Assembly (NCBI GenBank): GCA_947568835.1
Contig: OX387605.1
Span: forward strand, 16,186,418 to 16,250,417
Source of the DNA: Protonemura montana
Lineage: Eukaryota > Arthropoda > Insecta > Plecoptera > Nemouridae
Length of the DNA: 64,000 nucleotides
Direction of reading: 5' to 3'
Below, one piece after another: positions 18,024 to 45,127 of this stretch. Numbering within the stretch: position 1 is the first letter of the stretch; each line of letters opens with the position of its first letter. The notes beneath the pieces are model-generated. The model searched no databases. It had not been told where the DNA came from and saw only the letters and a program-made list of their open reading frames with translations. A program made the translations under genes and the position numbers.

Positions 18024-19150
18024 CTAGACTGCCCCATTTTGACTCGAACAGCACGAGCGTTTGTTTTCCTTTGCACTTAGTGTAATTGTGTCTTCTACTT
18101 GGCGTACGTTGTCGGGACTTGATATGAAATCCTCTGCTACTGTCTGGAACAGTTCCACTGCAAGAAAATGCAACATTGAATAAAAATACCTGTACAAATG
18201 TTCCTGAAAATATTTTACCTTAACTGTAATGATTAGAGAATACATTTATAAGACATTTTAGGCATAGATAGTACAAAGGATGTAAAATCAATGGTGACCA
18301 ACTGACCAACATTTTCTCCAGTTTTGCTTGATGTTTCGTAGAAAGTAGCCTGAATACCATCAGAGTAGCGATATGCGGTATTGATCTCCACTTGTCTGTT
18401 TTCAGACATGTCCTTTTTCGTCCCACAAATATATATACGGCAGTTTTCCTCCTGGCTCCTCAATTCATTCACCCAGAACTTTGCTCGATCCCACGAGGCG
18501 AGGTTACCGATATCGTAACATACTATGGCAGCTTTAGCTCCTCTATAATATATCCTACTCATCGATTCGTACCTGGCAATAGAATATGCTTTTATTAATT
18601 AAGATGACATTAAAATAACCCCTTAGTTAATGGCACATGGTACCTGCCATCGACAATGGGGTGGGTGGACAGTGAGTTAAAATCAGGATCACTAACCGTT
18701 CACTGCCTGCTGTGTCCCAAATTCCAATGACAAACTTTTTGTTATGTACTTGGACTTGCTTTGCAGCAAATGCTGCTCCAATAGTCTGGAAGAAAATACA
18801 ATGTGAGGAGCTGACCACACGTATTCTCGAATACATAGTCCAAGCGTATCTGTTTTCAGTAATGAGCTGATGTACCATAAAAAACGTGGTTTAAAGTACG
18901 TGGTTTGTTACTGTTTTACTACTAATTTATCCTTAATAGACTGCAATAGGCTGTCTGAACGGACAAGTTTTACCTTGGCCTTATTGATTCTTATTTCAAA
19001 TCGTGGTATTGTAATGTTATGTTCATTTTTAGGTTAACTTACATTTTGGTAAAATTCTGCAAATCTGCCGTAAGCGTATCGTTCTAGTAAACTTGTTTTT
19101 CCAACATATTCACTACCTAAGAGAACTATTTTCAGATCAACTCTACTCAT
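18024..19150 (-). CDS. RAB24: Ras-related GTPase Rab24
   Basis: Atypical Rab linked to autophagic and late endocytic traffic, with low GTPase activity and mainly GTP-bound (family knowledge). Exons in transcript order: 19150-19043, 18785-18697, 18572-18307, 18157-18024; all GT-AG, giving 198 residues. P-loop GSEYVGKT at 12-19; switch I YQNTIGAAF at 34-42; DTAGSE at 60-65 has Ser64 where most Rabs have the catalytic Gln, the Rab24 hallmark; [15 protein letters not shown] at 72-86; GTKKD at 116-120; ETSSKTG at 145-151. The Tyr in the P-loop (Tyr15) corresponds to the phosphorylated Tyr17 of mammalian Rab24. The tail [12 protein letters not shown] has the Cys pair eight residues in from the end region rather than at the very C-terminus, so conventional double prenylation is doubtful. 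The start ATG has no upstream rival. Confidence 0.95.
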
Positions 19151-43950: not shown

Positions 43951-44020
43951 TTCCATGAGCGTTTCAGTTTAGTTTTCCCACAACCGCTGACAGCGTATGA
44001 AACAGAAATATGACAGTTCT

Positions 44021-44245
44021 AACCTCCGAGAAAGAGTTATTTAAGCTGGATGAAATCTTATTTAAATTACAAACGCTTGCAATGCCCGGTATTTTATTAT
44101 TCATTACGAACACTAAAACCGTCTCAAAAATTGATGTCCTAACGGGGACTCGAACCCAGATCTCCACCTACCGCGGGTGTTGCTCTAACCTATTGAGCTA
44201 CTTGGACACTGGCTTTTTGAGACGATTTTAGTGTATTTGATGAGA
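44021..44245 (-). mobile_element. tRNA-like retroposon with internal inverted arms, copy A
   Basis: A 73-base tRNA-like module (44135-44207, minus strand) has a 7-base acceptor stem, a 4-base GCTC/GAGC D stem, a 5-base anticodon stem, a 4-base variable loop, a T arm with GGTTCGAGTCC and a discriminator A. It contains Pol III A and B boxes. It is framed by inverted arms at 44110-44130 and 44214-44234 (20 of 21 matches). The whole unit lies between perfect 11-base direct repeats ATGACAGTTCT (44010-44020 and 44246-44256), as expected of retroposition. Position 33 is G rather than the invariant U, so it is not a working tRNA gene. Most likely a SINE; the paired arms are unusual for one. Confidence 0.75.
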
Positions 44246-44369
44246 ATGACAGTTCTCCAAAGATTAGAACCAAGAGGCTGTGAATACTCACAGTCACTCT
44301 GATTCTAGTGACGTCATACCACGTCACAACCTGTCAATTTCGAGTAACTCCAATTTGACGTCGGATGCG

Positions 44370-44575
44370 TTGAATGTTGATGAAATCGCATTCAATTTGC
44401 AAACGCTTGCAATGCGCGGGGTAATTTATTATTATGAACACTATAACCGTCTCTAAAATTGATGCTCTAACGGGGACACGAACCCCGATCTCCACCTAAC
44501 GCGGGTGTTGATCTAACCCATTGAGCTACTTGGACACATGCTTTTTGAGACGATTTTAGTGTATTTGACGAGATA
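44370..44575 (-). mobile_element. tRNA-like retroposon, copy B
   Basis: Same layout as copy A: tRNA-like module 44463-44535 (73 bases) with arms at 44438-44458 and 44542-44562. Similarity to A continues about 70 bases beyond the arm on the 3' side of the element (shared GCAAACGCTTGCAATGC). The T stem is perfect here (CGGGG with CCCCG), while the acceptor and D stems have decayed. Confidence 0.7.
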
Positions 44576-44599
44576 GGTGGATAGGTGCGATAGATACGA

Positions 44600-44668
44600 T
44601 TGGTGAAGATCTGAGTTCGAGTCCCCGTTTGGGCATCAATTTTTGAGACGGTTATAGTGTTCATAATA
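44600..44668 (+). mobile_element. tRNA-like retroposon, inverted partial copy C
   Basis: The 3' half of the same element on the + strand: GATCTGAGTTCGAGTCCCCG, then an arm at 44640-44660 and the ATAATAAT tail. Together with the left end of copy B it forms a long inverted repeat across 44430-44668. The A-box half is missing and replaced by GATAGG/GATAGA-type sequence. Confidence 0.65.
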
Positions 44669-45127
44669 ATAAGCTATAAGCTAGGATATGAGCTTGTCTT
44701 TGAGTCATCCCAAAATTCCACCCTTCGCAGCGTCCCCCGCCGTGCCTAGTTAAGATTTCATTCCACGATCACAAGCATAGAATCACCGGCTGTTGATGAG
44801 CATTGTCAGTGTAACCCCCCAGATTTGGAGTAAAATTAATATATTCAACTGGATGTATAAGAATGGAAACTTATTTAGTTAGCCGAAAGAATTTGAAAAA
44901 GTCGTAGTGAAAAATGTGTGCATGAAGGTACTACAGTTCACAGTTCGTACTATCTCTATTCTGTGTGAACCCGGGTTTCTACAGTCTAGCCCACGAGAGA
45001 AGATACCAGCCTAAGGAGCTTTCCAGCATTGCCACCAACTCATGAATTAAATTTTAGTCATGATTTTGGGCTTTCAAAATACTTCTGATGTCTGCAAAAC
45101 ATTTCCCAACATTGTTAATTGATTTGT

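What the first reader, a model, noticed from the sequence alone, without database searches (positions are those of the whole stretch)
44010..44256. A 73-nt tRNA-like cloverleaf framed by 21-bp inverted arms inside a retroposon with a perfect 11-bp target duplication
Seen directly: the 73-base minus-strand module (44135-44207) folds by hand into all four tRNA arms with a discriminator A; 20 of 21 bases pair between arms 44110-44130 and 44214-44234; ATGACAGTTCT flanks the 225-bp unit. SINEs normally carry a tRNA head at one end and a LINE-like tail at the other; inverted arms clasping the tRNA part suggest an RNA presented on a long stem, or a DNA-transposon shell that captured a tRNA-SINE. The 21-bp duplication points to retroposition. 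Two more partial copies next door show it is a family.
Basis: partly seen in the sequence, partly recalled or inferred. Interest (0 to 1): 0.75.

Follow-up and report, generated by a model that had tools for sequence, protein, structure and literature searches.

The report
Penelope-type retroelement carrying tRNA-like module
A short non-coding mobile element, present in over a thousand places of an animal genome, carries a tRNA-like piece where its self-sufficient relatives carry a self-cutting RNA, and its copies bear the double-start and inverted-copy footprints of the poorly understood Penelope class of retrotransposons.

Summary
The tRNA-like cloverleaf and its 21-bp inverted arms are real, but the unit and its "target duplication" are misread: ATGACAGTTCT at 44246-44256 is element sequence, exact behind the unit in 14 of 41 copies and within 3 mismatches in 31 of 41. 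The true insertion is about 44048-44669: core, spacer, core, truncated inverted core. It belongs to a family of 331-bp units (1,219 exact matches to a 3'-end 35-mer). Copies show the signature of Penelope-like elements (PLEs): head-to-head inversion (43 of 60), two preferred ends about 45 bp apart, duplications of 10 bp or more in 23 of 60 (shuffled 0.12%). A PLE with an open 845-aa frame and the same layout lies in this genome. I conclude: a non-autonomous PLE-type retroelement with a degenerate tRNA-like module and no hammerhead found. The arms do not covary and look like a fossil of an ancestral inverted insertion. In many copies the tRNA body is a 52-bp tandem array (6,242 exact junctions). 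Partner PLE unidentified; transcription untested.

The parts
44048..44669 (-). The whole insertion (sense = minus strand): core + spacer + core + junction + inverted truncated core; right edge uncertain by about 3 bp
   Evidence: segments m1-323, m2-196 direct, then an inverted piece ending at t~283
44048..44245 (-). First core (t331 to t136 of the 331-bp monomer), pseudo-LTR-like
44246..44378 (-). Spacer (t135 to t1) between two cores; begins with ATGACAGTTCT, misread as target duplication
44379..44573 (-). Second core; its outer edge is at the recurrent 5' boundary t~136
44574..44601 (.). Scrambled junction between second core and inverted piece
   Evidence: printed; unaligned
44602..44672 (+). 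Inverted 5' piece of the core (t213-283) ending near the inner start site t~285; last 3 bp shared with the flanking TAAGCT
44135..44207 (-). tRNA-like cloverleaf; family consensus lacks U33, T-stem pair broken in 29 of 85 copies
44214..44234 (-). 5' arm (arm1, t147-167)
44110..44130 (-). 3' arm (arm2, t251-271); contains TTTTT, a potential Pol III terminator
44048..44093 (-). 'Tail': about 45 bp between the two inferred RT start sites (t~286 near 44093, t~331 at 44048); approximate
44042..44047 (.). Left copy of a 6-bp direct repeat TAAGCT (other copy 44670-44675); possible target duplication, not significant alone (6 bp or more in 20% of shuffled pairs)

Best explanation
A non-autonomous retroelement inserted by the machinery of Penelope-like elements (PLEs). 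Its RNA contains a start region near the 3' end of the core. The enzyme cuts both strands of the target, and each cut end starts cDNA at one of two preferred places in the RNA (t~286 or t~331), giving two cDNAs that meet head to head. The result is a direct copy plus a truncated inverted copy, with an optional ~45-bp tail and a target duplication of about 8-18 bp. Templates longer than one unit give tandems. The tRNA-like module keeps recognisable Pol III boxes and probably began as the promoter of an ancestral tRNA-SINE; it sits in the pseudo-LTR, the part in which PLEs carry a hammerhead. The arms are most likely the relic of a founder insertion's own inverted 5' piece. Shown: family, monomer, two preferred ends, inversions, duplications, a PLE in the genome with the same layout. 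Inferred: that a PLE supplies the enzyme and that the ends are its start sites, the order of steps, the promoter role, the fossil origin of the arms.
For: Inversion in 43 of 60 copies taken in order on C1; outer end of the inverted piece at t280-291 in 30 of 43, 18 of them at t285-286; duplications of 10 bp or more in 23 of 60 against 0.12% of shuffled pairs. In 20 copies chosen by arm1, not by the 3' end, direct 3' ends fall at t285-289 (6) or t330-335 (5); 4 lie elsewhere and 5 run into arrays. Over 111 clusters, 55 of 179 outer 3'-ward ends lie at t281-290 and 96 at t326-331 or up to 10 nt beyond; 68 of 111 are head to head (without duplicates 54 and 92 of 173, and 66 of 107). The 29 duplications of 8 bp or more are 71% A+T against 60% in the flanks. 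Published PLE hallmarks: direct plus adjacent inverted pLTR, 8-10 bp duplications, pLTRs sufficient in trans (PMC3846280, passages); two internal RT start sites whose interval is the 30-40 bp tail, both strands cut and extended, A/T-rich targets (PMC11167929, parts 1-2 of 4). A PLE in this genome has an open 845-aa frame with RYVDDTF and a GIY...YIG-like motif, an inverted pLTR of 297 bp at 99.3%, a tail of about 56 bp and the duplication ATGAACCTATTT. Arms: no covariation; the recurrent 5' boundary at t~134-136 lies 11-13 nt outside arm1, as the start site lies 14-15 nt outside arm2.
Against: No letter similarity between the monomer and that PLE (alignment score below the mean of shuffles); the partner is not identified. 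Pfam does not recognise a GIY-YIG domain in it; the motif was read by eye. The tail is 45 bp, longer than the 30-40 bp published. 37 of 60 copies lack a duplication of 10 bp or more, 13 of 43 inverted pieces end outside t280-291, 4 of 20 direct 3' ends lie at neither site, and the window's own duplication is only 6 bp. The arms still pair in 91.5% of cells, though many of those copies were chosen by arm1 or by similarity.
Confidence: 0.8

Rival explanations
1. An ordinary tRNA-derived SINE moved by a LINE, with frequent L1-like twin priming making the inversions.
For: tRNA-like sequence with A and B boxes; duplications of 8-18 bp; many RT frames in the genome, not sorted into classes (150 of 1,781 candidates scored).
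Against: Inversion in 43 of 60 with a preferred outer end, and direct 3' ends at both t285-289 and t330-335 in a sample not chosen by its 3' end. Twin priming predicts scattered inner sites and one 3' end (recalled). No poly-A tail at the 3' ends printed.
Confidence: 0.1
2. The arms are a maintained RNA helix that presents the tRNA-like part.
For: Fold z -6.0 for the consensus core and -7.3 for the window copy; 91.5% of arm cells pair; some published PLE pLTRs have 5' palindromes.
Against: 1 of 21 arm pairs with a two-sided change; an A-A mismatch in 76 of 85; cDNA ends are not concentrated at arm2 (6 of 86 in t271-280, 2 in t261-270, 4 in t251-260) but at the tRNA-like 3' strands (31 of 86 in t231-250).
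Confidence: 0.15
3. A retrozyme (tandem element with hammerhead, moved as circular RNA).
For: Tandem units of about 300 bp, as published for non-LTR retrozymes (PMC7229834, passages), for which PLEs are named as likely carriers (PMC7761336, passages).
Against: No hammerhead-like core on either strand of the monomer by a scan that finds it in this genome's PLEs; nothing in six loci by Rfam at E up to 5. No circular RNA tested.
Confidence: 0.05
4. A terminal-repeat retrotransposon in miniature with a tRNA-like LTR (Helenus type).
For: Core-spacer-core looks like LTR-internal-LTR with a tRNA-like sequence (PMC10886601, abstract).
Against: Helenus makes 4-5 bp duplications; here they are variable, 8-18 bp, with truncation and inversion.
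Confidence: 0.03

Closest known systems
Penelope-like elements (Penelope/Poseidon type)
   Same: Tandem or partial-tandem pseudo-LTRs, adjacent inverted pseudo-LTR, optional tail between two start sites, variable target duplication (published; here)
   Different: No coding frame, no hammerhead found; tRNA-like module in the core
Metazoan non-LTR retrozymes (PMC7229834)
   Same: Non-coding tandem units of about 300 bp
   Different: Retrozymes are defined by a type I hammerhead; none found here
tRNA-derived SINEs
   Same: tRNA-like sequence with A and B boxes, high copy number
   Different: The tRNA-like part is internal and framed by arms; ends are of PLE type; no partner LINE found
Helenus TRIMs (PMC10886601, abstract)
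   Same: tRNA-like sequence inside a terminal repeat of a non-autonomous element
   Different: 4-5 bp duplications there; variable longer ones here

Membership tests
Penelope-like element | RT frame with GIY-YIG endonuclease | tested here: not met
   331-bp non-coding monomer; so at most a non-autonomous relative or parasite
Penelope-like element | Tandem or partial-tandem pseudo-LTRs | tested here: met
   24 of 222 segments exceed one monomer
Penelope-like element | Adjacent inverted pseudo-LTR, head to head | tested here: met
   43 of 60; 68 of 111
Penelope-like element | Optional tail between two RT start sites | tested here: met
   direct 3' ends: 6 at t285-289, 5 at t330-335, 9 other, of 20; 45 bp against 30-40 bp published; that the ends are RT start sites is inferred
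Penelope-like element | Hammerhead in the pseudo-LTR | tested here: not met
   found in PLE loci L129, L130, L132, L133, L134, none in the monomer; the remaining loci gave 4 more hits (L069 twice, L070, L004); Rfam is blind to this type
tRNA-derived SINE | tRNA-derived Pol III promoter | tested here: inconclusive
   A and B boxes present by sequence; no transcript tested
tRNA-derived SINE | 3' end shared with a partner LINE | tested here: inconclusive
   no other body attached to the 3' end in 60 loci; LINE 3' ends were not fetched
Retrozyme | Type I or III hammerhead | tested here: not met
TRIM / Helenus | 4-5 bp target duplication | tested here: not met
TRIM / Helenus | Primer-binding site and polypurine tract | not tested

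The most novel reading that the evidence does not exclude
A SINE-like parasite of the PLE machinery: a tRNA-promoted non-coding RNA that a PLE enzyme accepts in trans because of its start region alone, with the tRNA-like body free to grow into 52-bp arrays (about 65 units at one locus). It would make the tRNA-like module a replacement for the hammerhead of PLEs and retrozymes.
Probability: 0.45. Interest if true: 0.7.

Novelty: new variant of a known kind. Interest (0 to 1): 0.55.

Why it matters
PLE mobilisation rests so far on one purified full-length active enzyme (so stated in PMC11167929, 2024). A non-coding family of over a thousand copies with clear footprints of both ends, both strands and the cDNA stops is a natural data set for that mechanism, and may show which RNA stretch is enough to be moved in trans. 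It also warns that tRNA finders may call such pseudo-tRNAs, as ARAGORN and Rfam did here, in a family that forms arrays.

Tried and rejected
Target duplication ATGACAGTTCT: rejected. DNA transposon with terminal inverted repeats: considered after L002 showed 31-bp inverted ends; rejected because a right-hand inverted end was found in only 5 of 41 copies and the inverted pieces mostly end at t~286. LTR/TRIM, retrozyme and LINE twin priming: see rivals. Hammerhead by Rfam: nothing, but the same scan misses PLE hammerheads and warns that its control rang nowhere, so only the hand-written scan counts; that scan has a background of 5 hits in 574,580 bases read (both strands, PLE loci L129, L130, L133, L134 left out; L132 is one of the 5). 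Partner PLE by shared letters: none in the pieces fetched. Weak Rfam hits on L013 such as mir-5014 lie across its inverted layout and below gathering scores. Literature for a PLE-driven tRNA element: 15 of 17 papers listed; 12 of 40; 15 of 43; 1; 13; 0; 8; none of the titles and abstract starts shown describes one; open PMC library only. One search (SINE with twin priming) found no paper. The Heliconius paper PMC6685494 mentions short non-autonomous Penelope elements without detail in the passages seen.

Full report
What is there. The tRNA-like cloverleaf is found by ARAGORN (44133-44208 minus) and Rfam (44135-44207, 42.1 bits). The flanking arms are real and the 125 nt from arm to arm fold as one clasped cloverleaf (z -7.3). 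The window is part of a 258-Mb genome in 34 contigs; contig C34 holds a COX1 with in-frame TGA, presumably the mitochondrial genome. No tool names the organism.

The unit. The 225-bp query had 1,913 first-look candidates, of which 40 were scored; besides the window there are 39 long matches, 37 beginning at query position 27-32 (near 44048) and 2 at 18-20, reaching position 222-225. I fetched these 39 with flanks (sample 1, L009-L047). It is element sequence; the match at 44010 is best read as chance or an older fragment. The repeat is a 331-bp monomer: a 196-bp core holding the arms and tRNA-like part, and a 135-bp spacer. I number the sense strand (minus in the window) t1-331: spacer t1-135, core t136-331, arm1 t147-167, arm2 t251-271.

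The window insertion. In sense order: inverted piece (44672-44602, t283 to t213), junction, core (44573-44379), spacer and core (44372-44048). The flanks share only TAAGCT, 6 bp, not significant alone.

Copy number. Exact 35-mers: arm1, 611; 3' end, 1,219; reversed-pattern controls 0 in both.

How copies are built. Sample 2: 60 loci (L048-L107), from the first 61 listed 3'-end matches on C1; one match was not fetched apart because it lies in a locus already taken. Two insertions are also in sample 1 (L059 = L011, L107 = L029), and L068 and L104 have identical flanks. In 43 of 60 the 5'-most piece is inverted; its outer end lies at t280-291 in 30 of 43, 18 of them at t285 or t286, and elsewhere in 13. 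Target duplications: 10 bp or more in 23 of 60 (0.12% of shuffled flank pairs), 8 bp or more in 29 of 60 (2.6%). The 29 are 71% A+T against 60% in the flanks, and 22 of 29 end in T. Sample 3: 20 loci (L109-L128), the first 21 arm1 matches listed on C2 minus one already held; not selected for the 3' end. Direct 3' ends: t285-289 in 6, t330-335 in 5, elsewhere in 4 (t258, 187, 272, 224), and 5 run into a tandem array. Over samples 1 and 2 plus the window, 68 of 111 clusters are head to head; of 179 outer 3'-ward ends 55 lie at t281-290 and 96 at t326-331 or up to 10 nt beyond (samples 1 and 2 favour the t331 end by selection); without L059, L107 and L104 it is 66 of 107, and 54 and 92 of 173. 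A recurrent 5' boundary lies at t~134-136: 4 of 20 in sample 3 (L116, L118, L119, L121).

Why PLE. In published PLEs the frame lies between two direct pseudo-LTRs with an adjacent inverted, shorter one, 8-10 bp duplications, and a ~31-bp tail optionally present; pseudo-LTRs alone carried a host gene (PMC3846280, passages). The purified Anolis PLE starts reverse transcription internally at two adjacent sites whose interval is the tail, cuts and extends both strands, and prefers A/T-rich targets (PMC11167929, parts 1 and 2 of 4 read). Head-to-head inversion with a preferred outer end and two alternative direct 3' ends is this signature; L1-type twin priming (recalled) would scatter the inner site and keep one 3' end.

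PLEs in this genome. A peptide of a PLE RT motif (recalled) gave 62 matches at E up to 1, 55 of them at 0.001 or better. The C4 copy reads 845 aa without a stop, with RYVDDTF and GVYEVSCECGKVYIGETGR; Pfam sees RVT_1 (E 2.7e-13) but no GIY-YIG, and the GIY-YIG family finds one place in the genome, not this one, so that assignment is by eye. A second copy is 99.7% identical over 1,939 bp. The C4 copy has an inverted pseudo-LTR (297 bp, 99.3%) whose outer end equals PLE position 1145, a 3' end at position 1201 (tail about 56 bp), and the duplication ATGAACCTATTT. Its pseudo-LTR carries a minimal hammerhead-like core (CTGAAGA...GAAACGTC), and such cores are also in L130, L132, L133 and L134; the monomer has none on either strand. 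Rfam misses this type. The element shares no significant letters with this PLE (score 15, shuffles average 17.8), so the partner is open.

Arms and cloverleaf. On 85 distinct copies (A1) 91.5% of arm cells pair, but only 1 of 21 arm pairs shows a two-sided change (2 cells), and one pair is mismatched in 76 of 85; T-stem pair 88/101 is broken in 29 of 85. The whole structure has 8 two-sided cells against 3.4 in shuffles (1 of 500 as high) and a covariation score of 0.055 against 0.052 (9 of 500), which related sequences can give by themselves; structures slid by 1-3 columns have 6 to 21 two-sided cells. These copies are biased towards intact arms. The anticodon loop consensus CGCGATA lacks U33, while an A box (TAGCTCAATGG) and a B box (GGTTCGAGTCC) stand in the consensus (box and U33 rules recalled). 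So: a pseudo-tRNA with promoter boxes. Arm1 mirrors arm2, and the recurrent 5' boundary lies 11-13 nt outside arm1 as the start site lies 14-15 nt outside arm2. The simplest history is a founder insertion whose short inverted piece became arm1 (inference).

cDNA stops. I took sample 2 without L048, and of 97 segments with a 3'-ward end at one of the two sites the 86 shorter than a monomer and ending below t290. Of these 86 inner ends 31 fall in t231-250, the 3' strands of the T and acceptor stems; 7 in t171-180; 6 in t131-140; and across arm2 6 in t271-280, 2 in t261-270 and 4 in t251-260. The tRNA-like fold, or the palindromic letters of its stems, seems to shape the junctions; the arm helix does not. 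No excess of outer 3' ends at the TTTTT of arm2 is seen, so templates probably read through it; Pol II or leaky Pol III remain open.

Arrays. Five of 20 sample-3 copies, plus L048, L050, L052/L135 and L136, hold a tandem array of a 52-bp tRNA body (junction t~228 to t~177); both arms around it were seen in L048, L050 and L052/L135, one side only in the others. The junction 35-mer has 6,242 exact matches, control 0. Of 70 neighbouring gaps up to 1 kb among the first 100 listed, 65 are multiples of 52; those 100 fall in 30 clusters. One array spans about 3.5 kb (L052 to L135, about 65 units; its middle known only from pattern positions). The junction joins two similar words, GGTTCGAGT and GTGTCCAAGT, which suggests misaligned copying (inference).

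Verdict. A non-autonomous PLE-type retroelement with a tRNA-like module and expandable tRNA arrays: a new variant of a known kind. Shown: structure and footprints. Not shown: transcription, partner, function of the tRNA-like part.

Noticed in passing
Genome-wide; L048, L050, L052, L109-L111, L113, L115, L135, L136: 52-bp tandem arrays of the tRNA-like body inside the element; 6,242 exact junctions, one array of about 3.5 kb.
   Followed up: partly
G000 C2, C4, C5, C11-C15: Groups of PLE RT motif matches with identical scores and 310-aa or 487-aa open frames lie within about 1 Mb of contig ends, which suggests telomere-associated PLEs.
   Followed up: no
L068 and L104: Two insertions far apart on C1 with identical flanks, so probably copies of a larger duplicated or mobile segment.
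   Followed up: no
L108 (C4:5760925-5762262) and C34: COX1 on contig C4 scores exactly as that on C34, with further COX1 pieces on C4 and C12: recent mitochondrial insertions or an assembly effect.
   Followed up: no
window 18233-18598, minus: Open frame that reads by eye like part of a Rab-type GTPase; probably an exon.
   Followed up: no
L132 167 +: A hammerhead-like core downstream of the RT motif at C11:18089452, in letters unlike the C4 PLE: perhaps a second PLE type.
   Followed up: no
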